From positions 678,252-742,251 of the forward strand of contig NC_090622.1 of assembly GCF_004359215.1 (NCBI RefSeq): a stretch of 64,000 nt of DNA, given 5' to 3'. A program made the position numbers and the translations under genes. The notes below the pieces were generated by a model. It searched no databases. It was not told where the DNA came from and worked only from the letters and a program-made list of their open reading frames with translations. Below are positions 597 to 64,000 of the stretch, piece after piece. The DNA is from Bremia lactucae (taxonomy: Eukaryota; Oomycota; Peronosporomycetes; Peronosporales; Peronosporaceae). Numbering within the stretch: the first letter of the stretch is position 1; each line of letters opens with the position of its first letter.

Positions 597-1504
597 TTAA
601 TTGGACTGGCAGAAGCAGCGTTGTGAGAAGAAACAGGGGGTTCCAGTACTGCCCATAGTTTCTTTTACACACAAGCGGGCGAAATTAATTTGTTGCGACA
701 GCTGTTTCATTGCATCGGAATGCGGATGAATGCGGCGCAATAAATCCGCCTCGTATTGGTCGGGCGTTTCATTGAACGCAACACGACTGGGATTGGGAAA
801 ATACGCCCAAGCGATTTTCCTTGAGCTTTCCATGACTAAAAGACGCGATAATAATCATGTACGTCAAGAAAAGCGCGCTCTACAAGTGACTCTTTTGGCC
901 CGTTTAAAAAATAAGTTTATTTTGAGTTGCTTTACAAAATTAAAAAATAAAATTTTGATGGAGGGGGCATCATTCATCACATAACCACGTTTTGAACGAC
1001 TAGCTTGTGACACCGACTGAGCACGTTCACGTGTCGCCAGCGGAGCTTTAGACTTATAATACTCTATGTCAGAATTATTATGGATAATAGTTTGAGCATA
1101 AGGCGTCGTGGTTTTACCCAGCGAAGAAGCGGTTGTGCATTTATGGCAGCGCTCTCATTAATAGTCGCTGCGCTATCCAGCGCAGACACCGAGACAGCAT
1201 TGAAAAATGTTGCTGTCTCGATGTTTTTAGCCATGAGAGATGTTCGAATGGGCAATAATGCGCCATCATCCTTTCTCATGAGCTCGTTGTCCGCATCACT
1301 ACTATGAGGTGATGGCAACGGTGTCGACTCATTGTAGTCGGCAATGAGCGACGGATTAGCATCCTCATTGTTAAAGTGGGATGGATCCTTAAGTCCTAAT
1401 AGCGCGACTGCAGCAGTAGCTGTCGGCGTTTCGACTAAGGCATTAGACGCTGCCGGGGTGTTCTCGAGGCGCGTGCGCTTAGTGCGAGGTTGAGTGGGCG
1501 TCTT
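597..1504 (-). pseudogene. family A opposite-strand ORF (A1 copy)
   Basis: Minus-strand translation matches the antisense frame of A2 and A4: an Ala/Ser/Thr-rich N-terminal part (ESTPLPSPHSSDAD), then the DQYEADLLRRIHPHSDAM block at about 690-760. It is broken by frameshifts and by an AT-rich insert of about 45 bp near 905-955 that A2 lacks. The frame runs open across the N at 1505 into unrelated integrase sequence, so its apparent start at 1594 is chimeric. Function is unknown. Confidence 0.6.
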
Positions 1505-1505: not shown

Positions 1506-3304
1506 CCATCTAGTGGGCATCTGGGCCGTGAAAAGACATTCTTACGAGTGTCAGAGGAATTTTGGTGGCCACACCTATATAGATGGGTGGCCAACTATAT
1601 TCGCTCTTGCGAACAGTGTCAGCGCATTAAGCCTGCACCGTCCAGCAGTGCGCCACTGAAGCCGCTACCGATTCCAACCAACTGTTGGAAGTCAGTAAGT
1701 CTGGACTTCATGTTTGGCATGCCGCCCGATCATAAGGGTCGGACAGGGCTAGTCGTCTTTGTAGACAGACTGAGCAAGATGGTGCATTTAGCACCATGTA
1801 AGACATCGATCACAGGCAAGGAGGCAGCTCTCTTGTTCCTGGATCATGTTTACCGACTACACGGGGGAGCCCGAGTCCATAGTATCGGACCGGGATCCAC
1901 GTTTTACGTCTGGTTTTTAGCGACATGTGTTCGGGCTGCTAGGTAGCAAGCTCCACATGTCGACCGCAGATCATCCCTAGACTGATGGCCAATCAGAACG
2001 TGCCAATCGGATCGTGGCGGATGCCTTACGCACTATAGCAACTCCCAAAGAATGGAGCAAGCAATTGCCCTTTGTGGAGCTCGCTATAAATAACAGTGTC
2101 CACGCCAGTACGGGTGTGAAACCGTTTTATATTGACTGAGCCATCCTCGGACGCCAGTCTCGTTTCTGCGCAGCCCGAGTCTTAGTGGGGAAAGCCCCTC
2201 ACTATGCCCGGTGCGAAACAGGGGTATAGTTTCGTCAATATGACGATGACCCATGATGGTATCATCTCAACGACAGAAACTTGCCCTAATGACCCTGCCA
2301 GTTTAGCAGTAATCAATAAAATTACGTCTTATGACCGACCTCTCAGCGGTATCATAGGCGCGTTTGATGCTAAAAGCGTGAGCGAGGCTCAATGCTTTGT
2401 GGATGAGCGATTAGCCGTAACACGAAAAGTCCGTGACGCGATGGCAAGCGCGCAGGACAAGCAAAAAAAATATGCAGACCGAAATGGTCGCAAAAATAAT
2501 GAACGCTTTTAAGTGGGTGAAAACGTACTATTAAGTACTGCTAACCTACCTAAGAATGCAATTCCTGTACTACCTGGAGGTACTACGAAGTTGTTGCCGC
2601 GTTTCATTGGGCTCTTTACGGTGGTAGAAAAGGTTGGAGACCTAAATTATAGGCTCGCCCTTCCCAAGTACATGAAGACGCACCCCGTATTTTACGTGGG
2701 TTGTCTTAAAAGGTATGTAGACCCAAATGAGGTCATATACCCCCATCCGTCTAAGGAGACCGATGGTGGCGCCGACTGTGAGTCGAGCGTCCTTCGGTTG
2801 TGGGAGACAGAGAGGGCGAAAAACTATCAGCCGACCGACTCCTCCCACCACGAACAGGACTCGGAGAGCGAAGGACATCACACTAGTAACTCGGATTACT
2901 CAGCATCATCCACTTAAAAATGTTCAAGCGAGTCTTTAGGCGTTCATAACCCTGACGATCTTTCGCTCGATCATCACAAAGATCCAAGGTCAGTCGCGAG
3001 ACTTGACCCTCGAGATCCGCAATAGGTCGTTCAGCAGCGCGAAACGCATGTACGGACGGAGGTAAGGCAGCCGCAAGAAGGTGGGCGAGATCGCCACTCC
3101 TGTCAGACGCCGCATGCTTTATTGGATGCGGGTGAGAGTCAACGCTTTCTTGTTCAAAGGTTGCTTGTTCACCGCTTACTCGTTTAATGGAAAGGTTACC
3201 CGAAGAGTTTCGACTCTTGGGAACCGATCGATACCCTACGTATTGATGTGCCCGGCTTAGTGGCTGCCTATGAAAAGGAGCACCAGCTGAGACCTCTTCG
3301 CTAG
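1506..3304 (+). pseudogene. gypsy integrase to chromodomain (A2)
   Basis: Reads GHLGREKT, then CEQCQRIK (second half of the HHCC finger, about 1600-1630). The integrase core follows with its first Asp in LDFMFGMPPD. The expected second catalytic block (SDRDPRF in relatives) is altered here to GPGSTF. After a frame break, 2204-2512 holds the integrase C-terminal helices and 2513-2917 the GPY/F module (RFIGLFTV, THPVFYVG). A chromodomain closes at 3302-3304 after WKGYP and WEP. Premature stops and the damaged active site mean it is not functional. Confidence 0.85.
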
Positions 3305-4004
3305 TCTTAATTGGACTGGCAGAAGCAGCGTTGTGAGAAGAAACAGGGGTTACAGTACTGCCCAAAGTTTCTTTCACACACAAGCGGGCGAAATTAATTC
3401 GTTGCAACCGCTGCTTCATCGCATCGGAATGCGGATGAATGCGGCGCAATAAATCCGCCTCGTATTGGTCGGACGTTTCATTTGAACGCATCACGACCAA
3501 GATCGGGAAAATACGCCCAAGCGATTTTCTCTGAGCCCTCCATGATTGAAAGACGCCATAATAATCATGTGCGTCTAGAAGAGAGCGCTCTAGGAACGAC
3601 GCTCTTAGCCCGTTTAAACGAGGCCATTTAGATGGAGGGGGCATCTTTGGAATGCCATCCGTCACATAGCCACGTTTAAAACGACTGGCTTGTGACACCG
3701 ACTGAGCACGTTCACGTGTCGCCAGCGGCGCTTTAGGCTCCGAATCCTCTATGTCAGAACCATGATGGATTATGGTCTGAGCATAAGGTGTTGTCGTTTT
3801 ACCCAACGAAGAAGAGGTTGTGCCTTTATGGGCAGCGCTCTCATTAACAGTCGCTGCGCTATCCAGTGCAGACGACGAGACAGCATTCGAAAATGTTGCT
3901 GTCTCCATGTTGTGAGCCATTGGAGAAGTTTGGATGGGCAATAATGCGCCATCATCATTCCTCATGAGCTCGTTGTCCGCATCACTACTATGAGGTGACG
4001 GCAA
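2883..4004 (-). CDS. family A opposite-strand ORF, 373 codons (A2)
   Basis: This is the longest uninterrupted copy of the antisense frame. An upstream ATG at 4226-4228 begins MPPKRG as in A4, but a stop and a one-base deletion near 4140 separate it from this open part. The protein is Ser/Thr/Ala-rich at the N-terminus, then has a conserved central block (WPRLNG, DQYEADLLRRIHPHSDAM, INFARL), and ends in a predicted coiled coil (RPIADLEGQVSRLTLDL) near residues 325-345. About 420 bp overlap pol antisense, including the chromodomain. The remaining 700 bp lie between the pol stop and the LTR and have no other explanation. Homologues occur at 597-1504, 45448-46412 and 62787-64000. No known domain was recognised. 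It could be an accessory or regulatory protein of the element. Confidence 0.55.
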   Translation of the reverse strand: MPSPHSSDADNELMRNDDGALLPIQTSPMAHNMETATFSNAVSSSALDSAATVNESAAHKGTTSSSLGKTTTPYAQTIIHHGSDIEDSEPKAPLATRERAQSVSQASRFKRGYVTDGIPKMPPPSKWPRLNGLRASFLERSLLDAHDYYGVFQSWRAQRKSLGRIFPILVVMRSNETSDQYEADLLRRIHPHSDAMKQRLQRINFARLCVKETLGSTVTPVSSHNAASASPIKTSEEVSAGAPFHRQPLSRAHQYVGYRSVPKSRNSSGNLSIKRVSGEQATFEQESVDSHPHPIKHAASDRSGDLAHLLAAALPPSVHAFRAAERPIADLEGQVSRLTLDLCDDRAKDRQGYERLKTRLNIFKWMMLSNPSY

Positions 4005-4345
4005 CGGTGTCGACTCATTGTTGTCGACAATGAGCGACGGATCAGCATCCTCATTGTTAAAGTGTGATGGATCCTTAAGTCCTAATAGCGCGACAGCAGC
4101 ACTAGCTGTCGGCGTTTCGACTAAGACATTAGACGCTGCGGCGTGTTCTCGAGGCGCGTGCGCTTAGTGCGAGGTTAAGTGGGCGTCTTCGCAGATGACT
4201 TATTAACGTGGCCCCTTTTTGGTGGCATCTTTGGCGCCGTGTATGTTAACACACGTGCGCTAGAGTGATTGAGTGAACTATCGGCGCGTAAAGCTGCTCG
4301 CAGTTCCTCGCTCCTCTTTGAAGAATGTAAAATGTTAATTCGTTC

Positions 4346-9500: not shown

Positions 9501-10545
9501 CGTCATTGAAGACGTTTTACGCAGTGTGTGTGCTCAGACACCAAAGCGCTGAAGCTCAATGCTCCCTGTGGTGGGGTTTGCGTTAAATGACGCTGTACAT
9601 GCCTCTACAGGCTATACTCCGTTCTATGTCAACGGTCCCATTCACCCACCCGCGTGTTCCATTAACGATACCACTGCGTGGTTCAGGGCTTGGTGGGGGA
9701 TAATTAGCCGATAGGCTTGCTGATATCAGCCTGTTACCGTTCGGAAAGAAGTAAGTGAGTTTCTCGCGACGCGAATTAGTTTTTTAATACATGTTTCGAA
9801 TACGATAACTGATAGCTAAGACAAACAAAAAAAGCAAGCAGATGCCAAAGGCAGAAGCTGTACTAATTCTTATATGGTGGGAGACCGAGTTTTACTTAAC
9901 GCTTAAAAATCTACCTACCATCCTGGTTTTCCGTGATCCTCAAGACCAAATTGCACCCGCGCTTTATTGGACCATTTACGGTCGTGGCCAAGAAGGCCCT
10001 AGCTTATACGCTAAACCCTCCTAGCAAGCTGCGCACGCATCCAGTGTTTTACGTTGGCTTGCTTAAGCCCTATCGGGACCCTATCCACGTGGACTTGAAG
10101 GCGCTTGAGCCGAGACAGGCGGTCGTGCCGCAGATTATTGCATCCCCACCAGGATATCCAATTGGCCCTCTAAACGAGGCTGCTGACGCTACAGCGTTGA
10201 AAGACGGTCCCAAACCGCCTCTAAAAACTTTCAACCCGAGCAAGGACCTAACGAAAAAGTTGCACCTCGTGCCCTAGAGCATCAAATGCTTCTCCGAACT
10301 TTCGGCTCCCTCCCGCGATGCTTGATGCGCTAGGAAACCTTCAGTTTCATGTAGAGAAACTTTTTAAGGGACGTCATCGTAAGGGCCAATATTAGTATCT
10401 GGTGAATTGGCTAGTGTACCCCTCTTCTGAAAACTTTTGGGAGTTCGAGGTACCTCTTCGGCAAGATTGCCCGTTAGCCGTTGACGTTTTTGAGTGCCAA
10501 GCTCAGAGTCCACTTGCGTCAAACGACGCTTCCCACCACTAGACA
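6528..10545 (+). pseudogene. gypsy protease-RT-RNase H-integrase-chromodomain (B1)
   Basis: Aspartic protease with IDSGASCNYA at about 6576-6610. A long linker (6879-7763) is rearranged by an inverted repeat. RT begins with RGVRHEIDLAPGAKY near 7912 and its catalytic block lies near 8500-8520 (TYFDDI type). RNase H has VCDASDFAIGSALLQTD near 8970. The integrase core C-terminal half (DHPQTDGQTERVNRV) is at 9454, GPY/F (RFIGPFTV, THPVFYVG) at 9960-10060, and a chromodomain-like end (YLVNWLVYP, WEFE) at 10391-10470. Many stops and frameshifts make it inactive. Confidence 0.85.
7380..7503. repeat. perfect 56-bp inverted repeat inside B1 pol
   Basis: Bases 7380-7435 are the exact reverse complement of 7448-7503, with a 12-base loop. 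B2 has only the right-arm orientation (near 49523-49580), so the left arm is an extra inverted copy. It interrupts the protease-RT linker. Confidence 0.9.
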
Positions 10546-11235
10546 TGGGATTAGGAGAATCTATAGCCTCAGTGCGGCTTCGGTCCATGGTTGTACGGTC
10601 AAATGAGCACTGCATATCGGCTAGACATTTCCTCGTTTTGGGGCATGATGCCGAATGTAACTGGCCTTGGGCCTATAGCTTAGCGAAATCGAATCGAAGC
10701 TTCCGTTTCAAACAAACACCACCACTATCCGCAGATTCTCAGATATTCCATTATTACAAAGACGCCGGGCCCGGTGGAACTAGTTCTCAAATTGGACTTC
10801 ATTTTCACTCTTTGTGTCGTTTGGAAACAAAACGATCGGAAATTCCCTTATGGAGGTTGCCGAAGCCTTACGGGTTTGAATACGTAAATGGGTCAGCTTC
10901 TGACTTCGCGTCACAACCTTTGGCAGAAGGTATCGCTCATGAAGAGCGTCGCGAGCAGCGATCTCCTTCGGCGTCCTCGCCGGGTCATCAGAGATCCAGA
11001 TGGCCAAGCTGTGACCCACTATCTGTTTGAGACGCTCGTCCGCACTAAAGCGGGGTGAATCTATATTCACTATGAGCTTTAGCTTTGGCTATCTCGGCAG
11101 CTCGACGACGAGCTTGTTTCTCTATGAGGATTGCTTATTCTTTATCGAGCGGATTCGTAATAATGTTGGACTCAGGGTCCCGTGCCTTATGCTCACTCTT
11201 GATTTGCTCAGCCGGCTCAAAATTGAACCGGCGTG
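10364..11235 (-). pseudogene. family B opposite-strand ORF (B1)
   Basis: Minus-strand frames give an Ala/Arg/Lys-rich helical stretch (EKQARRRAAEIAKAKA, about 11070-11120), then ADERLKQIVGHSLAIWI and DPARTPKEIAARDALHERYL. A Lys/Arg-rich segment (GGKRRLTQVD, near 10540) and NLAEEVPRTPKSF follow. A sister copy on - at 52744-53540 shares these blocks. It overlaps the chromodomain end of pol antisense, as in families A, C and D. At least two frame breaks are present. No known domain was recognised. Confidence 0.55.
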
Positions 11236-11972: not shown

Positions 11973-13359
11973 GTGACTGGTCCAAGTCACCTGCATCGTC
12001 CGACTCAGTGGCCACTGTAAAGGCCGCCGAATTACCTTGGGCCTGTATTTCTATAACACTTGAGTACGAAGGCCGAGTCCGTTAAACCGTTGGGTTATAA
12101 CGTGACAACCAGAGAGGCGATGCCGAGGTTATTCGACCTGTCGGACCTATTTGGTGGGGAGTCATCAACAGATGATTCCGCGGGCGATGGCCACTCTGGT
12201 GTCGTTAGTATGCGTCACCAGGAACAAAGAGGTTGTGAAGGGAAGAGTGCTGGTGGTAGCGCCAATTTACTTTACCAGGAAAGGAGTGATTCTAGGGATC
12301 GCTCGAACGGCCAAGTTAACGTCATAGGTAACATGAGCCAACAGGAGAGGGAACTCATATACGTTACGGTTCGACCCTGAAGAGGCTTTCGACTTTCTCT
12401 AAGGGTAACCTTATTCGCTGGTCTGGTATGGTCAACGGTCGATATTAAATTCCGTTATTCGGCTCATTTAGGCTTCACAGACCTGATGAGAATTAAAAGA
12501 AATTTCATCATTGCATTTCCGGCATCGGTGGTACTCTTGTAAGCAGGCAAAGATGTTAAACCTTTATTTCAACCTTGGACATCCTTTGTACAGAATGTGC
12601 AAAACATAAGTCGTGAGGTCAGGCTTGACAAGCTGAATGGTTCAAGAAACGGACCGTAGTCAGTGCACGCTATAAATTGCGCTGTTGATTTAGAGTGGCA
12701 AGGATTCCTTGCCTCTCTTGGGAAGACTCATGCCCGTGCTGTTTTAAGGGTGCAAGTCATGCCCCCAAGGAATCATATTCCTTCAAAGATCCTCATTGGG
12801 AGACTCTCATCTCTTACGAGATGCGTCAAAAGATTGAGTACCTCCAATTCTTTTACGAGCGCGGAAAGCGCTCGTTCTCCGATAGACCTTCTGTCGAGGA
12901 GGATGAGTCTCGTCTTACTGCAGGACGAGACCAGGACCGTCCAGCATCAGCTGGGGACGAAATTCCAATCCATCTTGCGATGAAGGATACGAGTTTAAAG
13001 TTTTGGTTTAGGGTTTAGGGTTAGGGTTTAGGGTTTAGGGTTTAGGGTTTAGGGTTTAGGGTTTAGGGTTTAGGGTTTATGAATTTGAAGAGGGAGGGAA
13101 AATTGGGCTCGCCTTGTTTGACGAACCCGAATCAACATCGTTATTTGGATCACAATCTGACATTGATCACGAGCGGTCCTGTCGCCACGAAATATCGGTG
13201 ATGGTTGATAATGTTTCTCGTGACCAGTTGAGAAGCTGTACGCAGGTTGCGCCCGATCAACTGGCGTACGAAATATCACATCAGTCATTTCAAAACAAGC
13301 TGGCAGAAGCTCGTCAGGAGATCTCTTCCTTGGAGGAAACTATACCGTCTGGTTCATGA
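11973..13359 (+). pseudogene. family C-type opposite-strand ORF (C1), split by telomeric repeats
   Basis: Several + frames (12060-12380, 12695-13006, 13114-13359) together resemble the C2/C4 opposite-strand protein. There is an acidic/Ser-rich N-terminal part, then RIPCLSWEDSCP, comparable to LPCLTWVDRCP in C2. A segment antisense to the chromodomain follows, and finally a coiled-coil end (NKLAEARQEISSLEE). A 73-bp TTTAGGG tract interrupts it at 13007-13079. Divergence from C2 is high, so this is an old or different subfamily member. Confidence 0.5.
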
Positions 13360-17700: not shown

Positions 17701-18240
17701 CCGAGTCTGCTCAGCAGGCTGAGATAGTGGCGCGTTAAGAATCAATCCCGGCGAGCCTGTCACTGAGCCGACATCGAGCAAGGCTGCAATCCAGCTTTCG
17801 GTTAACAGACGATGTGGCGGAATAGATCCTTACACACTCGAGCATCTAGCGATTTGACTGACGAATCTCAGTTGCCGCCCGCCCTGCTTGCGCAGCACAC
17901 TCCGATGCTTCCTCCGCTTCGAGCTGAGTACCAGCAGCCCGGTTTTTCGCGGCGTCCGCATCGTCCGCATCGTCTTGGGCGACCAGGACGAATGTTATAC
18001 CATTGCGATGGTTAAGCTCACCTTGTGGATGCTGAGGGAGAATTTCGCCGGATTGTTGATCGACTTGATCATCACTCGGATCCACCGAGTGAGTTCGGTC
18101 TAATGGCATTTGAGGAGCGCGCGATTTCAATCGCTCGCCGCTATCAGACACGCTGAATGGGTACTTATCCCGAGAAAGATACATGAGGACCTCGCTTCTC
18201 CCTTCTTCGTGACGTTGCCGATGTCGTTTGAGAGTTTGAT
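14786..18240 (+). pseudogene. Ty3/gypsy family D pol, heavily decayed
   Basis: The linker LSWKHFLRGLNAGIIDQKCL is at 14791-14850 and the RT start RGIEHEVDLVPGFKYSVTRQW at 15057. RT blocks follow to about 15740, then RNase H remnants (CDASDFAIGL type, near 15980). The integrase core (FFFDLPPDDRGRMGILAFVD, then VIDRDPRFTSTFW) is at 16619-16909 and GPY/F (LRLHPTFNVW) at 17642-17680. The chromodomain near 18138-18230 reads RRYQTR-stop-MGTYPEKDT-stop-GPR, with two TGA codons at the usual Trp positions. No gag or LTR could be assigned. Confidence 0.75.
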
Positions 18241-18943
18241 GCCAATTCGTTCTTTGCGCTGAGTCCTCGGGAACTTCGAGGCGAGCATATGTCACGACGA
18301 CGTTCCAGCTTGTAGATTCGTCTCCGAGTTGCGAATGCGGTCTCCGCCTTGCGCAAAGAATTTGCAACGACCTTAAGATGACCTGGCGGACTCGACGCTG
18401 TCGGCGGAGTCGACGCGATCTGCGACGAATAGTGGAGGCTTTTTAAAACCAAGGCTAAGCTCCTACTTGCCGACACAAGCCTGCTCGATCTCGCTGAGCG
18501 GTCGCCTAGCGATTTGGGTTCTCCAAGATGCCCTAGTCGGTCTAGGCTTGACGGACACGTGGACGAAGCAGAAGCGGTCCTCGTTTTAAGCGTTCTCACA
18601 CTATGCCGCGTAAAGCGCTGAGGGAATAATCAGCGCGGAGATCTTCCCTGTCGACCAAACCGACAAAGATGGGACCGCTGGACATCGATTTTACTGCCTG
18701 ATAAAGGCACACAACGACGTCTGATGCGCATAATATCCGACGCCGTCAATTATCTTTCCACGCAGGCTGCGGAAGCGTCGGAAATAATCTCGCAGGGTCC
18801 GGAGTATCCGCTCTGGGCAAGTCGTACAGCACCCACAGCTGAATGGCGACGTCCTCTAAATGGATGCATGCACTGCCGCTGATGTTATGGTCTTCTGCGA
18901 GACTGCTTACACTTCGTTCCGTCATAGTTGCCTGAGTCTTCAT
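17846..18943 (-). pseudogene. family D opposite-strand ORF
   Basis: The minus frames start with ATG at 18943 (MKTQATMTERSVSSLAEDHN, then LWVLYDL). They continue through a Ser/Arg-rich part (18165-18599) and a 173-codon frame (17846-18367) with HQTLKRHRQRHEEGRSEVL, ending in an Ala/Glu-rich coiled coil (LEAEEASECAAQAGR). The frame lies downstream of pol and overlaps the chromodomain antisense, as in families A, B and C. Sequence similarity to the other families is not evident by eye; position and layout are. Confidence 0.45.
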
Positions 18944-29424: not shown

Positions 29425-30958
29425 TCAGGCATAAAGTAGCTTGACTATCCGCTTGAAGTCGCGGGGTCTGCTATTTTGTTTGCGAAATTTCCGAACTAGT
29501 CCAAAGATTAGTCCCTTAAGAACGCCTGGCGGGTGAGCACTGTTAGCAGGAATGTACAAGTACAAATTCAGAGCTTTCTGGTATGTACGAGTGTAAACCT
29601 TGTCGTTGTCTCGGATGATGCAGAGGTCTAAAAAGACGGCTTCAGTACTTGATGTAGTGCTTGTAAAGCGTAGACCTGATCGTTGAGAAAACTTGGCTAG
29701 GAAGTGCTTGAAGCTGTAAGGGCTGCTACCGGGGCTCCATAGAAGAAAAATATCATCTATATAACGCTTGTAGTAATTTACATGGGAGGAAAACTCTGGG
29801 AGTAGAGTGTCTTCGACATGAGCTACATAGAGCGAGGCAAAAGCCGGAGCGACCGGTGTACCCATAGCTGTTCCGCGTAATTGTCGCCAGCACGAGTTTC
29901 CGAAGGTGAAATAGTTGTTGTTCATCACTAATCGGAGTCCTGATATGATTACGTCCTTCCATGGGTGTTTTAATAGACGAGCCGAGATAGCTTGAAGTGC
30001 TCTTTCGATTGGGATGTTAGTGTGAAGTGATTCTACACCCACAGTGATAAGCAGCGTATCTGGCGGGAGCGTCTGATTTGGAAGGTCATGTAGGAGCTGG
30101 TCGGAATTGCGTAAGTATGTCTGCGTGGACTGGTAAATAGGCTGGAGCATGTAGTCGAGCCATTTTGAAATACCTTCAAATATGCTTCCGCTATAGGAGA
30201 CAATGGGACGGATACAAAGTAGAGGCTTGTAGATCTTAGCTTAAGCATAGAATACATTAAGCCTAGCAGTTGGTAAACTTGCTACAATGATCCTTGTAGT
30301 ATCCCAGTCAGTATGGTACGCATATGTCTTGGCGACAGTTTGGTACCAGTTCCGAACTCGGGTACGAACGAGTCGGGTAAGAGCTTCAACTGGGGCGCGT
30401 TGGCGCTCGTAGGTGGCCTTATCGGAAAGATGGTCCACACACAGTTGTATGTAATGCTCCGTTGTGAAAAGTGCCGGTCCGAGATTCTTATCGGTAATGA
30501 CAACCTTAAGGTCTGGAAGGCCTTTCAGCAACTGAAATGTGTTGCGTTGCGTCGTATTCAGATTTCTGCACTTTGTAGGAGTCCAGGTTTCATGTTTGAC
30601 AGCGTCACGGACACGTTTCAGGATTTCTTCAACTTTAGCTGATGCTAGTTTAAGTTGAAAAGATGTGTTCGGAACATAGATCTTGCGATTGTATGTTCCG
30701 AGAGTGTTTCCGAATTGAGCGGAGAGTCGTACTCGACGCTCAAAGTCGGGAAGTGCAGCATGAAGATCGGGCGGTTGGATAGGTCGAGGAGTCGGGCAGA
30801 ATTTAAGGTTGAGGCCTATTAAACGATTTAGAGCGGGCGGAATAGGTATAGATTTAGGAACATAGTTATGAAAAGCTAAGTTCCTAGCGTAACTATTTAA
30901 TTCCTTAACATTGCTCCTGGCAAAAAGAGCCAGGGCATTACCGCGATCTGATCGAGTT
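29425..30958 (-). pseudogene. Penelope-like reverse transcriptase
   Basis: About 511 codons with one in-frame TAA at 30241-30243. The frame goes on in the same register on both sides (LNVFYA, stop, AKIYKPLLCIRPIVS), so a single substitution would account for the break. The N-terminal part has LKVVITDKNLGPAL. RT blocks are VGVESLHTNIP, QLRGTAMGTPVAPAFASLYV and YYKRYIDDIFLLW with the YIDD catalytic pair, then AVFLDLCI. These features separate it from LTR-element RTs. It ends with RPRDFKRIVKLLYA and has no following endonuclease domain. Upstream it is open from the end of ORF1 in a frame one base back. Confidence 0.85.
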
Positions 30959-33604: not shown

Positions 33605-33942
33605 CAAACTAACTAGACTCACCACTCGGGCGTGGTTCACATTGTGACCCACCCTTAAGTATGTGATGCGCATAGGTGCATTCACATTAGGAGGGATGAC
33701 GCCTAGCATCGTCCGTGATGACGGCTAGCGTCATTTGTTACGCAAGGTATTTAGAAAGATACGCTCGCAATACATATTAGCGTTATCTATAGAGATGACA
33801 TTTTATAATTGGTAAAAAAGTTATTTATATTTAGTGCGATTAAAACAATCAGTCTAAAAACGCCCTCCTACCTGGTTAGTGCGCACGAGGAGTCGGATCA
33901 CCGCTCCCGCGACGACACTTTACTAGAGTACTGAGTGCGTTG
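33605..33942 (+). repeat. LTR-A, left part, interrupted by C2
   Basis: Matches LTR-A (A2) from about 4440 to GTGCGTTG at 4760, in + orientation, then is cut by the LTR of C2. The matching right part of an LTR-A follows the far LTR of C4 at 59250-59337. Confidence 0.8.
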
Positions 33943-34377
33943 TGTAAAGGGGCACTGCCAACTTGTACTGCTTCAGTACAAGTCCACTTCGCACTGCTCA
34001 GTGCGAGTGGTGCCTCACGTCACTTCACGTACACTAGTACGTGCAGAGGATGCCTCTCTTTAGAGCACTTGCTTTAAAGAAAGTGAAGAGATAACTGTAT
34101 TTAGTATAATAAAGTTCTTCTGTTTCTATCTATATAATACTTAATTATAAACTGATACAAACATGAAATTAAGTCTTCTCTGTCTCTCTTTTTGCGCGCG
34201 TTCAGCGCTGACTGGACCGCGAAGCAAGAAGACATAACAGTCTATATGTACCAGTGGATAACCTTTAAAAATATTACCGTGTAAACTAATATTCTCCAAA
34301 TATTAACAACCTTTTAGATCATATATTATTTAGCAACCTTGAAGTGTTAATTTCATGTAGCGATACACCCCGCTACA
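33943..34377 (-). repeat. 3' LTR of C2
   Basis: 435 bp with terminal TGTAAAGG/GCTACA on +. On the minus strand it is preceded by a purine-rich GCGGGAGGGGTGA (34378-34390), the expected polypurine tract. Confidence 0.85.
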
Positions 34378-34494: not shown

Positions 34495-36184
34495 ATGGTT
34501 AACAATCCATGTGGTATGCGAATAGTGCAACGCCTTCGGCTGCGGTTCATGCAGTCGCGGGCGACGCAACGTTGACTCTTGCGGCAGACGTTCCGTCTGT
34601 CGTAGCATCGTCTCTCCCGCAACATCTAGATGTTGCGGGTGCACGTGATGATTCACCACGTGAATGCGACCCCTCTTTGGAGGTCGACTACGAATGCGAG
34701 CCGGACGAAATGGTCGACTCGATGAGAACAGAACAGTCGCCTCATAGTCGTCAGTCGGCTGACTATGGCCCTTCAAATGAGGGGGCTCAATATGATAAAC
34801 GTGGTAATAGCGTTCGCTATAGCATATTTGGTTCCGACGATAAGGATGAATCCTCATCACCAGCACCGTCTCCCGTGCCGTCACCCACACATATTTCTGT
34901 GCGTGGTGATAACGATGGCGCAAGCCATCGTAATAAAAGTTCTTGTTGTACCCCTACTTCAGTGGGTACGACTCAGGGGAGCGTAGACAAGAACATAAAA
35001 CGTCTCGTTTTGCTCCTGAGAAGAATCCGTGGCTTTTGCCCGAGCGGCTAATTAAATGCTTGTCTAGAGAGACTACTCCTCACAAATAATATCACTCATT
35101 TATTGCGACATGGCCTTGATCCCACCGCGAAGAATTTTTGCGCTGAAGAAGTTTTTTATCTCGATGCTTTTCTTAAGCATCGATGGTATGGTGGCAACAA
35201 CAAGCGAGATAAAATCTCGCTGATGCAAGCCTGGAGCACTTTTATTTGCAATGTCATAGACATTGGTTGCGCAACCTGGCTTGAAAGACTTAACGCGATT
35301 CGCGTTAAGTTTGAGAAACGAACTGCAACCGGTGCAAGGTATAAATCGCATCGGTTGTCACGTGAGGCAGGACTTCCATGCCTCACGTGGGTTGATCGTT
35401 GTCCTTATTATGTTGACAATACAAAGCGAGTAAAAGGGGATGTCTATTCCCTTTCTTCGCTGTGGGGAAGGGCTCGCATCTCTATCTAGATGCGCGATGC
35501 GATTGACGTTTTGCAATCGATTTACAGGCGCTAGGGGCGCGTGTTTTCCAATGGACTTTCTGATCCATCAGATGGGTCTCGTCATACTGGCGGACGAGAC
35601 CCTCAACGTCAACAATCAGCTGGGAACGGGGCTCCCAGCTTTCATGCGAAGGTGGATAACCGCGCCATCGAACCAATAACTCGTTCGCTGCTTCTTCACA
35701 TCACAATGGTTTTAAATACGTTCCACAAGGAAACGTTGACCACCGTGGGAATCCACCAATGGTTGTGGCGGAGTTGAAAAAGTTAGATCCGAATCGTGTG
35801 TCGAAATTAGAGCCGAAGATCGACAAACTTGATCGCAATCTCCATGTATTGGAAGAGAACCTTGTACAGGAGCGCGGTACGCGTCACTCATTGGAGCAGA
35901 CGGTGTAGGCTCACTATATGGAACGGTTGGAACACCGTTCAAAGAGTGCGTACTTCATAATGAAGAACGAACGGAAAAATCACGCTCTTCGTGATGAGCT
36001 CTCGTCCGCTCGTCGCGGTTTCGAGGATCTTCGGACACGACATGAGAATCTCCAGATTCAACATGAGAATCTGGTTTGTGACTTCAAGAATCTTTTAGAG
36101 ATTCTTGAAAAGGGTGGTCAGATTCGTCCTCGGAGGAAATCGCGTATTGATGTTACGGGCGGATCAGACCAACGTAAGACGTAG
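34495..36184 (+). pseudogene. family C opposite-strand ORF (C2)
   Basis: Frames from ATG 34509 or 34495 to 36184 carry an Asp/Glu/Ser-rich N-terminal part (SSSPAPSPVPSP). A conserved NPWLLPERLIKCLS follows in a shifted frame (near 35020). The 35103-35489 frame then has LDAFLKHRWYGG, QAWSTFICN and LPCLTWVDRCPYY. Next is an RRVFS-like segment antisense to the chromodomain, and finally a coiled coil (NLQIQHENLVCDFKNLLEIL, 36045-36105) with a basic end (IRPRRKSRID). The last part also exists at 53883-54269 with about 70 percent identity. Frame breaks occur near 35050, 35490 and 35780. No known domain was recognised. Confidence 0.55.
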
Positions 36185-39294: not shown

Positions 39295-41557
39295 AGGCGC
39301 ATACAGATCGAGAGTATAAGGGCCTACTATTGATCAGTCATTAACCAAGACATTTAATGTCTCGGTTTCTTCCCGGGATATATGCACAGGCTGCCAAGAG
39401 ATTAATCCCTCGGGATCTTGAAGTCTAGTCACTTCAGCACTAACTATTTGAGGAGATTTCTCTTCAAGTACGTGGGGACTTATTCCCTCAGCGTCTACTG
39501 ACTATGATTGCGCTATCACAGTCGGGTTCTCTACGGTCGACTCTCTGCTCGACCTAGAATCATCGTTTTGTCCTTTTTGAAAAACCGGTATATCCCATAA
39601 ATGTCACCCGCTCGACGTACATTCATGTCTCAATCCACTGGACTTATTCGAGTGGTGGACCTTTGGCGCTGTCTGTGCATTCGCACAGCCGCCGGCAGCT
39701 GACTCCACATTGTGATTGGTAATCACACTGTGATCTTGTGCAGTCGTACTAACGACCGTACCACAAGTGAGGCCATCGCGCTCACTCGTAGCACATCTAC
39801 ACGATTGTAGACGCTCCAAGACGTTTATCAGATGGCCATCTGATTAACAAGTGGCAGGCATCTTTACGGATCGATGCTGCCAGCTGATTCTTGGTTCATA
39901 TTTTCTGAGCCAAGGTAAACCTAGGATGACATCAAATTTGTCATCCAAATCCAGTACAATAAAATCGTCATCGTACTGTAGATTTTCTAACGTGTAGTGA
40001 AATGTCACTACGCGTTTCATTACTGTTATCGATGCGCCTGTCGCTAGACGCACCATCATCCTCGTTGGAGGGATGTCGCGCTCAACATATTTGAGCCTAC
40101 GATCCTCTAGCGACTAGCGACGAATAAAGCTATTCGACGCTCCACAGTGCACTAGGGCTCTAAGTGACTAACTATTTGTCACTTTTAATTACAAGGTGAT
40201 GAGGAAAACCTCATCGCCAGGTGCAGAGACACATAATGATTGTGTGTCTGGAGCAACTTTAGTCAACAGATTTGCAAATTCTTTTGAGGTTGCTGGATCA
40301 GTAGAAGGTTGCGCCCGTACTGATCCAGACTGTTTTTGGCGGTCCGGCTCGCTGTTGCGATTTCGCAACAACTTTGGACCCGCGACTATTGCCCTTTTGA
40401 CATTCGGTCCATAAGCACGTTCAGTACCTTTCGGTATTGGGCGTGGGGAACTACACACAATAAGATGCGATTGCATAAGATGCGATTGCAGAAATTCAAT
40501 CGCTAGCAAAATTGAGTCATTACGCTTGTCGATCGCTAATACTGTGTCATGAATCAGTGGCAATTGCCTCGTGAACAGTAATAGCGATATACGAGCGTAA
40601 TGAGCCAACTGTTGACAGCGATTGCATTTCTGCAATCGCTATTGCTCGAATAACGAGGTTACTCGCTTTCGACATAAGAGAGTTCCATCAGTTTTGAACC
40701 TCCAAGCTCGTGTCGTCTTGGAGGACGATACAGTGACGAACTAGCTTGAGCCTATCTCAAGCTAAAATCCTTCTATTCCGCAACGGATGTTGCTTCTTGA
40801 AGCGTATCCAGTCCCAAGCGGAACAGGTGGGTCTTTACGGGACCATCCGTAAGACCTTGCATGAACACCGTAATCAACGTGTGTTCTTGGACTATGTTAT
40901 TTGTTATACAACTCGCTAAGAGTCGTATGTGCTGAAAATATGCGTGAACATCACGCTTGCCTTGCTTAAGTTTCAGAAGCTCTGAACGAGCTCTGAACTC
41001 AGCCCTTGGCGGTTCAAACGTCTGTTTGAGCCGGGCTTTAAAAGCCTATAGCGACCCAAAGACGTATGGGTCGCGCAACGTAAGGCTCAATGCCCAAGTT
41101 TTGGAGCGACCTGCCTAATCTGATTGAGCGAATGCGACTTGCATTTGCTCGTCGACGATGTGACGTGCCCTTAATGCATCGTCCAACTCGACAAACCATC
41201 TCAAGAGAGAGTCTTCTTCGACTCCCCTATACTTAGAGATGTCAATCTTTCAGGTTTCCGGACGACGCGTGTGCGTCATCCCAGGTACAGGGTTCTGTAC
41301 TTGTTGTAACCTCAACAATTCTGCCTGTTGAGAGCCTTGCGGATTAAGCAAGGCTACCTTCTCCTTCGCCTCGTCATGTTCATGTGTATGAACTTGGCGA
41401 TGATAAATAGAGGGCATCTTTGTCAAAATCGGACAGCATGGCCAAGATGGCATCGTTCCCTACGGTCGAACTCATTCGTTTGACCGCACTCCTTTCTATG
41501 TCACTTAGAAAGGAGTAGCTATCACGCGAAACGGACGAACTACAAAGTGCTACCAGG
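39295..41557 (-). pseudogene. gypsy gag-protease-linker (C2)
   Basis: On minus: the gag N-terminal region (41634-41250), then capsid remnants in broken frames (about 41000-40680). A zinc-knuckle-like CNRCQQLAHYARI starts the 148-codon frame 40189-40635. The protease end follows at 39844-40059 (LDLDDKFDVILGLPWL, typical of the gypsy flap and C-terminal block), then a Ser/Thr-rich linker to 39604 and on to the inversion. The segment 39622-40767 is almost identical to 57291-58436. Confidence 0.75.
39622..40767. repeat. near-identical tract shared with C4 (copy 1)
   Basis: 1146 bp aligned without indels to 57291-58436 at a constant offset of 17669. Only about four differences were noticed, while sequence on either side is only around 80-85 percent similar. 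Confidence 0.8.
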
Positions 41558-41995
41558 TGTAACGGAGCACTACTGACTTGTACTGTTTCAATAAAAGTCC
41601 ACTTCGCACTGCCTCGGTGCGAGTGGTGCCTCACGTCAGTTCACGCACCTAGTACGTGCAAAGGAAGACTCTCTTTATAGCACTTGCTTAAAAGAGGTTG
41701 ATAAAACCGTATTTAATATAATTAAGTTCTTCTGCTTCTGTCTATTAAGTACTAAATTAATTTTAAACTAATACAAAACATGTAATGAAGTCTTATCTGT
41801 CTTTTTCTTTTGCGTGCGTCCAGCGCTGACTGGACCGCGGAGAAAGTAGATATAATGGTGTATATCTACCAATAGATAAGCTTTTAGGAAATTACCACGT
41901 AAAGATATATTCTCCAAATATTCTCTACCTTTTAGATAATATACAATTAACAACCTTAAAGTGTTAATTTTCTTGTAACGATACACCCCGTTACA
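41558..41995 (-). repeat. 5' LTR of C2
   Basis: 438 bp from TGTAACGGAGC to CCCCGTTACA on +. Next to it on the right is unique DNA starting CGTGT. It differs from the 3' LTR (33943-34377) at many positions. Confidence 0.85.
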
Positions 41996-45447: not shown

Positions 45448-46412
45448 GTGCCACCTACATGGGCAACGTTGGAGGGTCGTCTGCGAAGACGCCCACTAAC
45501 TCTTGCATTTAGCGCGCGCGCCGCGTTAACACGCCCTGCAGCGTCCAATGCCTTAGCTGAAACGCCGACCGCTACTGCTGCTGTCGCGTTAACGGGGCTT
45601 AAGGATTCATCCCACTTAATCAGTGAGGATGTTGATCCGTCGCTCATTGTCGACTACAATGAGTCGAGACCGTTGCCGTCACCTCAAAGTAATGATGCGG
45701 ACAAGGATCTCACGAGGAAGGATGATGGCACATTATTGCCCATCCAAACTTCTATCATTGCTCATAACATGGAGACAGCAACACTTACGAATGCTGTCTC
45801 GTCGTCTGCGCTGGATAGCGCAGCGACGGTTATTGCGAGCGCTGCCCATAAAGGCGCAGCCGCTTCTCCGTTGGGTAAAACCACACCGTCTTTTGCTCAG
45901 ACCATTATCCATAATGGTTCTGACATAGAGGATTCTGAGCGTAACGCTCCGCCGACGACGCGTGAATGTGCTTAGTCGCTGTCACAAGCCAGCCGTATTA
46001 AACGTGGCTGTGTGACGGGTGGCATATCACTTATGCTCCCTCTCTCTGAATGGCCTCGTGTAAACGGGACAATAGCGTCGCTCAAAAAACGCGCTTTTCT
46101 AAATGCTCAAAACTATTATGGTGTCATTAAATTATGGAAGACCCGGTCGTGTTGCGTTTAAATGAAACGCCCGACCAATACGAGGCGAAATTCTTGCGCC
46201 GCATTCATCCGCATTCCGATGCGATGATACAGCGGTCGCAGCGAATTAATATCGCCCGCTTGCGTGTGAAAGAAATCATGGGCGGTACTGTACCCCCTGT
46301 TTCTTCTCACTACGCTACTTCTGCTAGTCCATTTGAGACTAGCGAAGAGGCCTCAGCTGGTGCTCCTTTTCATAGGCAGTCACCAAGTAAATTCACCGTC
46401 TCCCTCATCTGA
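45448..46412 (+). pseudogene. family A opposite-strand ORF (A3)
   Basis: The start codon is GTG (45448-45450) where A2 and A4 have ATG, 133 nt from the LTR. The frame is open for 175 codons (ALTGLKDSSHLISEDVDPSL, ERNAPPTTREC) to a TAG. It then continues with frame changes to LRLNETPDQYEAKFLRRIHP and GAPFHRQSPSK at 46412. The coiled-coil end is missing, because the antisense chromodomain region is deleted next to 46412-46474. Confidence 0.55.
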
Positions 46413-51500: not shown

Positions 51501-53080
51501 ATCGCGGACCCTCCGCGTGTCATTGTTCCTCATGATGAGGAGGTGAAGTACCGGATCCAATATGAGGCACACGATACTGTCCTTGGTGGTCATCTCGCTT
51601 GAGAAAAGACCTACGGCTTCATAGGCCAGAGTCGGTGGCCCAAACTTTAAAAATGGGTCAGCACATATATTCGCACATGCGAAACGTGCCAACGGATTAA
51701 ACCCTCGACACATGCTGCTGCGCCACTGGCGAGTCTTCCCGTCCCCATAGGATTGTGGGAGTCCATTAGTATGGATTTCGTCTTTGGGCTACCGAAAGAT
51801 TCAGCCGGTAACTCCGGTATAGTGGTCTTTGTTGACCGTTTGAGCAAAATGGCTTACTAAGCAGCCGTGCCAGATTCCATTGATGGAGACGGTACAGCTA
51901 AGCTGTTCATCGATCGCGTGTTTCGAAAACATGGTTTGCCAGTGGCAATTATCTCTGATCGGGATCCCCGATTTTACGGGTAAATCTGGAAATCAATTTT
52001 CCGAGTGCTTATAACCAGATTGGAGATGTCCACTGCGGACCATCCACAGACCGATGGTCGAACTGAACTTGTCAATCGCGTCATTGAAGACGTTTAACGC
52101 AGCGTGTGTGCTCAGACACCAAAGCGCTGGAGCTCAATGCTCCCAGTAGTGGAGTTTGCGTTCAATGACGCTGTTCATGCCTCTACAGGCTATACTGTGT
52201 TCTATGTAAACGGTCTTACCAACCGCGCGTTCCATTAACGATACCACTGCAGGGTTAAGGGCTTGGTGGGGGAGAATCGGCCGATAGGCTTGCTGATATC
52301 AGCCCTGTTACCGTTCGGAAACAAGTAAGCGAGTTTCTCGCGACGCGATTTAGTATCTTAAGACATGTAAGAGATACGATGGCTGATAGCCAAGACAAAC
52401 AAAAACAAGAAGCAGATGCCAAAAGCAGAAACTGTATTAATTCGTATATGGTCGGAGACCGAGTTTTACTAAACGCTAAGAACCTACCTACCAACTTGGT
52501 ATCCGCGGTCTTCAAGACCAAATTTCGCCCGCGCTTTATTGGACCATTTACGTTCGTGGCCAAGAAGGGCCTAGCTTATACGCTAAACCTTCCCAACAAG
52601 CTGCGTACACATCCAGTGTTTTACGTTGGCTTGCTTTAGCCATATCGGGACCCTTCCCACTTGGACTTGAAGGCGCTTGCGCCGAGACAGGCGGTCGTGC
52701 CGCAGATTGTTGCATCCTCACCAGGATATCCAACTGGCCCTCTTTACGTGGTAAAAGCGATTTCGGCGAAAGACGCCCGAACCGCCTCAAAAGAGCTCCC
52801 AACCCGAGCAAGGACCTCACGAAGAAGTTGCACCTCGTGTCGTTGAGCATCAAATGCTTCCGCCGAAATTTCGGCCCCCTCCCGCACCGCTTGATGCGCG
52901 GGGAAACCTTCAGTTTCATGTGGAGAAACTTTTAAAGCGACGTCGTCGTGAGGGTCAATACTAGTATCTGGTGAAGTGGCTAGGGTAACCCTCTTCCAAA
53001 AACTCTTGGGAGTTCGAGGTACCTCTTCGGCAAGATTGCCCGTACAACGTTGACATTTTTGAGCTCCAAGCTGAGGGTCA
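48600..53080 (+). pseudogene. gypsy protease-RT-RNase H-integrase-chromodomain (B2)
   Basis: Protease IDSGVSCNYARR near 48640-48675. The linker is open at 49274-50080 (268 codons), ending with the RT entry (VHHEIDLVMGTKYCVT). RT has WRIVHAYNKLKAATIPAQTP, WLSNAPATFNRLVTQLFRP and TYFDDIFVHSRAEQGRSDM (FDD, about 50490-50505). RNase H at 50744-51223 is fully open (SIVFDASDFAIGSALLQTDV). Integrase finger and core follow near 51590-52090 (CETCQRIKPS, MDFVFGLPKDSAG, DHPQTDGRTELVNRV). GPY/F (RFIGPFTFV, THPVFYVG) is at 52535-52640, and a chromodomain-like end (YLVKWLG, WEFEVP) at 52962-53040. It is broken in several places. Confidence 0.85.
48877..49095. other. local inversion plus family C insert within B2
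   Basis: 48877-48975 is the reverse complement of the sequence that is direct in B1 (about 6858-6935). It is followed by about 120 bp (48976-49095) matching the family C opposite-strand ORF near 34980-35090 (APEKKPWLLPERLI). B sequence then resumes with AATGAGTCTGTCACTG. Confidence 0.75.
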
Positions 53081-53540
53081 ACTCGCGTCAAACGTCGCTT
53101 CCCACTACTAAACGTGGGATTAGGTGGATCTAAAGCCTCAGTGCGGCTTCGATCCTTGGTTGTACGGTCAACCGTAGCACTGAAATATCGGCTAGCCTTA
53201 CTTCGTTTTGTGGCATAAATGCTGAACGTAACTGGCCTTTGGCCTAAAGCTTAGCGAAGTCGAAGCGAAGCTTCACCTTAATCCGCAGACTCTCTGATAT
53301 TCCAGATATTACGGAGTTTGCGGGCCCGGTGAACCCAGTTCTCAAATGAGACTTCGTTTTCACTCCTTGTTTCGTTTGGAAACAAAACGATCAGAATCTT
53401 TCTCATGCAGGTCACCGAAGCCCCACAAGCTTGATCACGTAAACGCGTCAGATACTGGCTTCGCGTCATTACCTTCGGCGTAAGGTAATGCTCATGAAGA
53501 GCGTCGCGGGCAGCGATCTCCTCCGGCGTCCTCGCCGGGT
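52744..53540 (-). pseudogene. family B opposite-strand ORF (B2)
   Basis: The minus frame 52744-53091 (115 codons) has GNLAEEVPRTPKSF, FPAHQAVREGAEISAEAFDA and a heptad-like coiled coil (VQLLREVLARVGSSFEAV). Upstream, in broken frames, VLFPNETRSENEVSFENWV matches B1. About 330 bp overlap the chromodomain end antisense. Confidence 0.5.
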
Positions 53541-53553
53541 CACCAGTGATCCA

Positions 53554-54269
53554 GGGGAAGGGCTCGCATCTCTATCGAGATGCGCGATGAGATTGACGTT
53601 TTGCCATCGATTTACAGGCGCCAGAGGCGCGTGTTTTCTGATAGACCTTATGATCCATTGGATGGGTCTCGTCATACTGACGGACGAGGCTCTCAACGTC
53701 AACAACCAGCTGGGAACGAGGCTCCCTGCTGTCATGTGAAGGTTGTAAACCGCACCAGCGAACAAGATAACTTGTTCGCTACCCCTTCACATCACGGAGT
53801 ATACGTTCCACAAGGAAACGTTGACAGCCTTGGAAATTCACCAATGGTTGTGGCGGAGGAGTGAAAATTAAATCCGACCCATGTGTCGGATCTAGTGTCG
53901 ATGGTCGACAAACTCGATCGCTTCCTCCATGATTTGGAGGAGGGACTTGACCACGAGCGCGGTAAGCGTCGCTCGTTGGAGCAGACGGTGCAGGCTCACC
54001 ATATCGAGCGGTTGGAAGACCGTTCGAAGAGTGCGTACTCCTTGTTGGAGTACGAGCGGAAGTATCATGCTGTCCGCGATGAGCTGTCGTCAGCTCATCG
54101 TAGCTTCGAGGATCTTCGAAACCGGCCTGAGAAACTTCAGGTTCAACATGAAAATCTGGTTCGCGATCACAATAATCTTTTGGGTATTCTTGTAAAGAGT
54201 GGTCAAATCCGTCCTCGGAAGAAGCCGCGTACTGATGGTACGGCCGGAGCCGACCAACGTAAAACGTAG
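53554..54269 (+). pseudogene. family C opposite-strand ORF, C-terminal part (C4)
   Basis: Frames 53580-53864 and 53883-54269 (128 codons). The second is a long coiled coil (VDKLDRFLHDLEEGLDHERG, RSLEQTVQAHHIERLEDRSK, FEDLRNRPEKLQVQHENLV) with a basic tail (IRPRKKPRTDG). The whole segment lies antisense to the end of pol, which is itself open here (53779-54420). Both strands being open and conserved against C2 is unusual. Confidence 0.55.
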
Positions 54270-62786: not shown

Positions 62787-64000
62787 ATGCCACCTAAAAG
62801 GGGCCACGTTGGTGGGTCGTCTGCGAAGACGCCCACTCGACCTCGCACTAAGCGCACGCGCCGCGTTAATTCGCCGGCCGCATCTAATGCCTTAGTCGGA
62901 ACGCAGACAGCCACTGCGGCTGTCGCGTTAACAGGGCTAAAGGATCCATCCCACTTTAACAGTGAGGATGTTGATCCGTCGCTCATTGTCGACTACAATG
63001 AGTCGACACCGTTGCCGTCACCTCACAGTAGTGATGCGGACAACAAGCTCATGAGGAGTGATGATGCGGCATTATTGACCATCCAAACTTCTCTCATCGC
63101 TCACAATATGGAGACAGCATCGTTTACGAATGCTGCCCATCGACAGGTAATGAGAGTGCTGCCCATAAAGGCGCAGCTGCTTCTCCGTTGGGTATAAACA
63201 CAACGCCCTATGCTCAGACCATAATCCATAATGGTTCTGACATAGAGGATTCGGAGCCTAAAGCTCCGCCGACGACACGTGAACGTGCTCAGTCGGTGTC
63301 ACAAGCCAGTCGTTTAGAACGCGGCTATGTGACGGGTGGCATTCCAAAGATGCCCCCTCCATCTAAATGGCCTCGTTTAGACGGGCCAAGAGCGTCGCTC
63401 CTAGAGCGCGCTCTTGTAGACGCACATAATTATTATGGCTTTCAATCATGGAGGGCTCAGGGAAAATCGCTTGGGCATATTTTCCCGATCCCGGTCGTGT
63501 TGCGTTCAAATGAAACGCCCGACCAATACAAGGTGGAATTCTTGCGCCGCATTCAACCACATTCCGATGTGATGAAACAGCGGTCGCAGCGAATTAATTT
63601 CGCCCGTTTGCGTGTGAAAGAAATCATGAATGGTACTGTACCCCCTGTTTCTTCTCACTCCGCTGCTTCCGCTAGTCCATTTGAGACTAGCGAAGTGGCC
63701 TCAGCTGGTGCTCCTTTTCATAGGCAGCAACCAAGCCGGGCACATCAATACGTAGGGTATCGATCGGTTCCCAAGAGTCAAAACTCTTCGGGTAACCTTT
63801 CCATTGGACGAGGATCTGGTACCCTTGCGTCACGGAGCGGTGGGCAAGCAACCTTCCAACAAGGAAGCGTTGATTCCCACCCGCATCCATTAGTGCCGGT
63901 GGCGCCCGATAGGAGCGGCGATCTCGCCCACCTAATCGCGGCTGCCTTACCTTCGTCCGTTCAGTCGCATGCTGCTGAACGACGTATTGCGGATCTCGAG
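62787..64000 (+). pseudogene. family A opposite-strand ORF (A4, best preserved start)
   Basis: ATG at 62787, 133 nt from the LTR, begins MPPKRGHVGGSSAKTPTRPR, a basic N-terminus that could act as a nuclear signal. It then has SNALVGTQTATAAVALTGLK and DVDPSLIVDYNESTPLPSPH. After a deletion near 63135 the frame changes, and the conserved centre follows: HKGAAASPLG, NGSDIEDSEPKAPPTTRERA, GGIPKMPPPSKWPRLDGPRA, DQYKVEFLRRIQPHSDVM, APFHRQQPSRAHQYVGYR. It runs past the window edge at AERRIADLE. Only one clear frame break is seen. It is convergent with, and antisense to, the chromodomain at 63687-63890. Confidence 0.6.
63687..63890 (-). pseudogene. gypsy chromodomain end of pol (A4)
   Basis: 67 open codons: QRFLVGRLLAHR, YQILVQWKGYPKSFDSWEPI, then VPGLVAAYEKEH and a stop. 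The aromatic residues expected of a chromodomain (Y, W, W) are in place. This is the clearest chromodomain in the window. The upstream pol lies outside, so whether the whole gene is intact is unknown. Confidence 0.75.

What the first reader, a model, noticed from the sequence alone, without database searches (positions are those of the whole stretch)
34495..36184. A conserved opposite-strand gene overlapping the chromodomain in four gypsy families
Families A (597-1504, 2883-4228, 45448-46412, 62787-64000), B (10364-11235, 52744-53540), C (11973-13359, 34495-36184, 53554-54269) and D (17846-18943) all carry a long frame on the strand opposite to pol. In each it occupies the roughly 0.5-1.1 kb between the pol stop and the 3' LTR and runs back antisense across the chromodomain. 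Within each of families A, B and C the protein sequence is conserved between divergent copies. In A to D alike the encoded protein ends in a coiled coil. Antisense ORFs are known in a few plant gypsy elements, but I know of no description in oomycetes. It could be a silencing, packaging or targeting accessory protein.
Basis: partly seen in the sequence, partly recalled or inferred. Interest (0 to 1): 0.87.

Follow-up and report, generated by a model that had tools for sequence, protein, structure and literature searches.

The report
Antisense gene in oomycete gypsy elements
Several families of virus-like jumping genes in this water-mould genome carry an extra protein gene written backwards over the end of their main gene; it is conserved like a working gene, has relatives in other water moulds, and resembles in layout the backward-encoded proteins of some plant jumping genes and of a human retrovirus.

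Summary
Confirmed and extended. Families A-D of chromodomain Ty3/gypsy elements each carry a long frame on the strand opposite pol. It starts about 0.13 kb from the 3' LTR (A, C), crosses the stretch beyond the pol stop, then runs antisense over the chromodomain and the linker before it. Beyond pol its dN/dS is 0.70, 0.67, 0.53 and 0.47 (A, B, C, D); non-mirror control frames give 0.84-1.37, and pol itself 0.67 in A copies. In C the third-position excess sits on internal branches (16/15/49), not on decaying tips; in A and B that test is not significant. Relatives occur in Peronospora, Hyaloperonospora, Phytophthora and Albugo. A and B cores are homologous (hhalign E 2.5e-9); C and D are not detectably related. 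All four use one overlap phase. In A and C the antisense signal vanishes opposite the chromodomain and is clear opposite its linker, where the coiled coil is encoded. Architecture: acidic disordered N-terminus, helical core, coiled coil (A-C), NLS-like signals, no membrane segment. Best reading: a nuclear self-associating regulator read from the 3' LTR, working like HTLV-1 HBZ or plant Retand antisense proteins, without detected homology. Transcription and function were not tested.

The parts
33942..34377 (-). 3' LTR of the family C copy (pol on - strand); the antisense transcript would start in or next to it (inferred)
   Evidence: 81.5% direct repeat with 41557-41995; polypurine-like tract and TGTAAC read at its inner edge
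34509..36184 (+). family C antisense gene, decayed copy: N-terminus and core to about 35481, then overlap with pol
   Evidence: pieces; ATG aligned by eye with the start of P0001; overlap start 35481 by alignment
35481..36182 (+). part of the C antisense gene that overlaps pol: opposite the chromodomain, then opposite the SH3-chromodomain linker (coiled coil)
   Evidence: Pfam Chromo and SH3_Tf2-1 on the pol strand in L031
36636..38157 (-). pol fragments of the same C copy: RNase H-like, integrase zinc-binding, integrase core (the last below Pfam's cut-off)
41557..41995 (-). 5' LTR of the family C copy
2883..4228 (-). family A antisense gene, best preserved window copy; overlap with pol from about 3305 downward; early stop at 2883
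597..1504 (-). family A antisense gene, broken copy ending at a single N (1505)
45448..46412 (+). family A antisense gene, broken copy
62787..64000 (+). family A antisense gene, cut by the window end
10232..11204 (-). family B antisense gene, broken copy
52747..53555 (-). family B antisense gene, N-terminus lost at the 53554 junction
53554..54269 (+). family C antisense gene, N-terminus lost at the 53554 junction
11973..13359 (+). family C-like antisense gene, strongly decayed; not used in any count
17846..18943 (-). family D antisense gene, frameshifted copy; not used in the dN/dS counts
   Evidence: related copies

Best explanation
Chromodomain gypsy elements of this oomycete carry a true protein gene on the antisense strand between pol and the 3' LTR. 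Inferred: it is transcribed from a promoter in or next to the 3' LTR, giving a separate mRNA. Shown by sequence or model: the protein has an acidic disordered N-terminus, a small mostly helical core encoded almost wholly beyond the pol stop, a disordered stretch opposite the chromodomain, a coiled coil opposite the pol linker (A, B, C), and short NLS-like signals, with an RS/SP-rich tail in A. Inferred mechanism: it acts in the nucleus as a self-associating regulator of its own element, binding host factors through the acidic region and tuning sense transcription from the LTRs or integration by the chromodomain integrase, so it works like HTLV-1 HBZ or the plant Retand antisense proteins. My estimate is 0.93 that it is a real selected protein gene and about 0.45 for the nuclear-regulator mechanism.
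For: Constraint in the part free of pol: dN/dS A 0.70 (0.59-0.85), B 0.67 (0.56-0.84), C 0.53 (0.41-0.65), D 0.47 (0.36-0.60) with 7 loci; the pol frame in 16 of 20 A loci gives 0.67 (0.55-0.82). Changes at codon positions 1/2/3 in C beyond pol: internal branches 16/15/49, p 8e-7; tips 147/129/159. Long-range conservation: C 215 proteins, the 120 listed at 39-93% identity, named sources mostly Peronospora matthiolae, also P. effusa and one Hyaloperonospora; A 17, named sources P. effusa and P. farinosa; B 20, including Albugo laibachii (41% over 85% of the query) and Phytophthora sojae (34-37% over 41-60%). A-B cores homologous, 0 of 120 shuffles as good. Same overlap phase in A-D (coordinates; frame 2 for A, B, C). 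Coil: helix 429-536, pLDDT mostly above 90, in C, 370-422 in B, heptads in A, B, C. NLS-like motifs in 16 of 18 proteins and no 19-residue mean hydropathy above 1.61. A TCACTCT or TCACTCC motif lies 37-43 bases before the ATG in 13 of the 15 A loci (of 20) where the start pattern was found; that it is an oomycete initiator is recalled.
Against: No transcript, protein or localisation evidence. No Pfam, PDB-sequence or Foldseek match to any regulator. Codon-position excess on internal branches beyond pol is not significant in A and B (p 0.11, 0.14). In A the mirror frame scores as low as the gene (0.69) and intervals of control frames overlap its own. For D the 4 close loci alone give 0.94 (0.55-2.29), no power. 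In A 89 of 113 matched stretches hold at least one stop (hand count). C and D cores show no detectable homology to A/B or to each other, so one gene of common origin in all four is not shown. NLS-like and acidic stretches are weak predictors.
Confidence: 0.55

Rival explanations
1. Integration or targeting partner: the protein rides with the integrase-chromodomain complex, lending NLS and coiled-coil contacts for nuclear entry or chromatin choice, rather than regulating transcription.
For: Opposite a chromodomain in the one copy scanned per family; NLS-like signals and coiled coil.
Against: Plant Retand elements have antisense genes and are described as non-chromovirus (PMC11963269, abstract), so the pairing may be only positional; no interaction evidence.
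Confidence: 0.25
2. Self-limiting or silencing-related factor: the antisense transcript and its protein restrain the element (copy control, as with Ty1 p22 or antisense RNA; recalled) or counter host small-RNA silencing.
For: Sense and antisense transcripts would overlap (inferred); sense and antisense small RNAs map to gypsy elements in Phytophthora infestans (PMC3522703, passages read).
Against: Those small RNAs map throughout the elements, with hotspots not located here; protein-level conservation shows that RNA alone is not the whole function.
Confidence: 0.2
3. Spurious antisense frame: open by codon bias of pol and conserved only because pol is conserved.
For: Overlap with pol over 0.3-0.8 kb in the reference copies; many copies broken; the B overlap shows no signal of its own; in the A and D overlaps the antisense and pol frames score alike (0.73 and 0.80; 0.77 and 0.77).
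Against: The conserved core lies almost wholly beyond pol and is constrained there; the opening was matched in 0 of 3000 draws in C; in the C overlap the antisense frame scores 0.55 and the pol frame 1.04; relatives such as P0009 (44% identity over 98%) and P0144 (41% over 85%) keep most of the length.
Confidence: 0.04
4. Env-like or gag-like structural protein placed antisense.
For: Position between pol and 3' LTR is where env-like genes sit (recalled).
Against: Wrong strand, no membrane segment, no gag, capsid or zinc-knuckle match in the proteins scanned; C has only a conserved C..C pair.
Confidence: 0.04

Closest known systems
Plant Retand-lineage antisense ORFs with the TRP28 domain (PMC11963269; abstract, passages and section 11 part 1 read)
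   Same: Ty3/gypsy; antisense protein gene between pol and 3' LTR as a regular feature; some encode Smc-type matches; a regulatory role is proposed there
   Different: Retand is described as non-chromovirus with a 2.9-6.6 kb pol-to-LTR region; here about 1 kb, chromodomain pol, deep overlap with pol, no TRP28 match
HTLV-1 HBZ (features recalled; named in passages of PMC11963269)
   Same: antisense gene near the 3' LTR; acidic N-terminus; C-terminal coiled coil; nuclear in HBZ, inferred here
   Different: HBZ has a bZIP region; none matched here; transcription from the LTR not shown here
Oomycete Chronos elements (PMC5348765; passages read)
   Same: oomycete Ty3/gypsy with a chromodomain at the end of pol
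   Different: no antisense ORF mentioned there (0 occurrences of 'antisense' in the main text); whether A-D carry the archaeal-type RNase H of Chronos was not settled

Membership tests
Plant Retand antisense TRP28 proteins | TRP28 domain (PF04195) in the antisense product | tested here: not met
   no PF04195 match in 10 proteins of A-D at E up to 1; none in the own genome, though the control genomes did not ring either
Plant Retand antisense TRP28 proteins | antisense ORF between pol and 3' LTR | tested here: met
   LTR position seen for A, B, C only
HTLV-1 HBZ-type antisense regulators | C-terminal coiled coil (zipper) | tested here: met
   A, B, C; D did not pass
HTLV-1 HBZ-type antisense regulators | bZIP DNA-binding region | tested here: not met
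   no bZIP family among the matches at E up to 1 in 10 proteins
HTLV-1 HBZ-type antisense regulators | transcription from the 3' LTR | not testable with these tools
   no RNA data; only a motif near -38 in A
Chromodomain Ty3/gypsy elements | chromodomain at the C-terminus of pol | tested here: met
   PF00385 in one copy each of A, B, C, D
Chronos | additional archaeal-type RNase H | tested here: inconclusive
   only RT_RNaseH families in the open window fragments of B and C scanned; pol is broken in the window and withheld (N) over long stretches in 18 of 20 A loci

The most novel reading that the evidence does not exclude
An antisense gene older than the split of Albugo from the downy mildews and Phytophthora has been kept by chromodomain gypsy elements, and the two strands have divided the overlap: where pol is folded (chromodomain) the antisense protein is disordered, and where the antisense protein is folded (coiled coil) it, not pol, dictates the sequence, so the pol linker is a by-product of the opposite gene.
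Probability: 0.42. Interest if true: 0.75.

Novelty: new variant of a known kind. Interest (0 to 1): 0.64.

Why it matters
Antisense accessory genes are known from deltaretroviruses and HIV (recalled) and from plant Retand elements (PMC11963269). Finding conserved ones, alike in build but mostly without detectable homology, in oomycete gypsy elements suggests that a nuclear antisense protein is a recurrent solution in LTR elements. The overlap gives a natural test of how two genes share one stretch of DNA. It also means that oomycete protein sets hold many uncharacterised entries that are probably element genes (one family C cluster alone stands for 1335 sequences).

Full report
OBSERVATION. 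The window (C13:678252-742251 of a 115.9 Mb genome) is dense in repeated, nested and decayed LTR elements. The same genome holds many copies: family A 113 matched stretches (110 of 5310 candidates scored), C 150 (150 of 3692 scored; 57 at 100%), B 152 (150 of 2462 scored; 60 at 100%), D 76 (96 of 96 scored). I fetched 20 loci of A, 12 of C, 8 of B and 7 of D. Single open frames of 462-525 aa in 5 of 20 A loci, 399-440 aa in 3 of 8 B loci, 363-427 aa in 6 of 6 C loci scanned and 490 aa in 1 of 4 D loci scanned occur.

ANATOMY. On the pol strand the end of pol carries an SH3-like domain (Tf2-1 type; C and B fragments) and a chromodomain (one copy scanned in each of the four families). The opposite gene starts 131-133 bp from the 3' LTR in C and A (coordinates), is free of pol for 301 codons in A, 285 in B, at least 193 in C and 180 in D, and then overlaps pol for 192, at least 103, 234 and 280 codons in the reference copies. 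The two frames stand in one phase in all four families: antisense third positions face pol second positions (arithmetic on coordinates). The conserved core is encoded before the overlap, in C but for its last helix turns; the coiled coil is encoded opposite the linker between SH3 and chromodomain.

IS IT SELECTED? In pairwise Nei-Gojobori comparisons of 24 A, 10 B and 14 C copies, the antisense frame beyond pol scores 0.70, 0.67 and 0.53; the four non-mirror control frames score 0.84-1.03, and the mirror frame, which shares its wobble base, 0.69, 0.82 and 0.59. In A the intervals of gene and controls overlap. In D, 7 loci give 0.47 (0.36-0.60) against 0.90-1.37 (mirror 0.63); the 4 close loci alone give 0.94 (0.55-2.29), without power. 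The pol frame before the overlap in 16 of 20 A loci gives 0.67 (0.55-0.82), so the antisense gene is about as constrained as pol in the same family. As expected for a mobile element, the C signal is on internal branches: 16/15/49 changes at codon positions 1/2/3 (p 8e-7) against 147/129/159 on tips; A 40/34/53 (p 0.11) and B 52/41/61 (p 0.14) lean the same way without significance.

WHO OWNS THE OVERLAP? In C the antisense frame of the overlap scores 0.55 and the pol frame 1.04; in A 0.73 and 0.80, in B 0.75 and 0.93 with wide intervals; in D 0.77 and 0.77. By segment, opposite the linker the antisense third-position excess is present in C (13/12/29 on internal branches; position 2 against 3 over all branches p 0.0002) and A (37/28/63; p 0.006), absent in B (p 0.86); opposite the chromodomain it is gone (C 3/8/3, p 1; A 2/6/5, p 0.65). 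So the antisense protein shapes the linker in C and probably A; that pol dictates the chromodomain part fits the few changes there but is not shown by them. The AlphaFold model of a C relative mirrors this: residues 345-427, which include the part opposite the chromodomain, are below pLDDT 50, and one helix, 429-536, is mostly above 90.

RELATIVES. C: 215 proteins, 120 listed, at 39-93% identity, named sources Peronospora matthiolae, P. effusa and Hyaloperonospora arabidopsidis, others unnamed ENA rows. A: 17, named sources P. effusa and P. farinosa. B: 20, with Albugo laibachii and Phytophthora sojae. That these relatives also lie antisense to pol was not checked. A and B cores align with hhalign E 2.5e-9, 96% probability, score 58 against at most 20.8 in 120 shuffles. 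C and D stand apart.

ARCHITECTURE AND MECHANISM. Of 18 proteins examined, the first 30% is net acidic in 16, NLS-like motifs occur in 16, and no 19-residue stretch exceeds 1.61 mean hydropathy; the last 60 residues of the 4 A proteins hold 7-16 RS/SR/SP dipeptides. D has an RS-rich middle, read from its translation. Coiled coil: AlphaFold helices in C and B, heptad test passed by A, B and C proteins (0 of 500 local shuffles for 5 of 6, 9 of 500 for one) and failed by D (125 of 500). None matches a Pfam family above its cut-off, the PDB or viral folds. The layout, antisense near the 3' LTR, acidic start and coiled-coil end, is that of a nuclear self-associating regulator; this step is inference.

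COMPARISON. The nearest kind is the plant Retand antisense gene (PMC11963269: abstract, passages and section 11 part 1 read), which sits in a much longer pol-to-LTR region and carries TRP28; no TRP28 was found here. The oomycete Chronos paper (PMC5348765, passages) describes chromodomain gypsy elements and does not use the word antisense in its main text. The listings of searches showed no description of an antisense gene in oomycete LTR elements; they cover open-licence papers only and short ranked lists.

Noticed in passing
As its genes are broken, it is either a very recent amplification of a dead composite or an assembly gap-filling artefact.
   Followed up: partly
window 59502-61412, - strand: 636-aa open frame with a ZZ zinc finger just above the Pfam cut-off (21.5 against 21.4 bits, E 2.1e-4); its searched part (to 60800) showed no second copy.
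   Followed up: no
window about 12990-13080: Run of TTTAGGG-like heptamers (inferred from the repeated GLGFRV* translation) inside the decayed C-like copy.
   Followed up: no
window 29425-30150, - strand: Reverse-transcriptase-like frame with GTAMGTPVAPAFASLY; resembles Penelope-like elements from recall, not tested.
   Followed up: no
window 1505: A single N lies where the first A copy ends and an integrase-like frame on the + strand begins, so that pairing of antisense frame and pol may be an assembly join.
   Followed up: no
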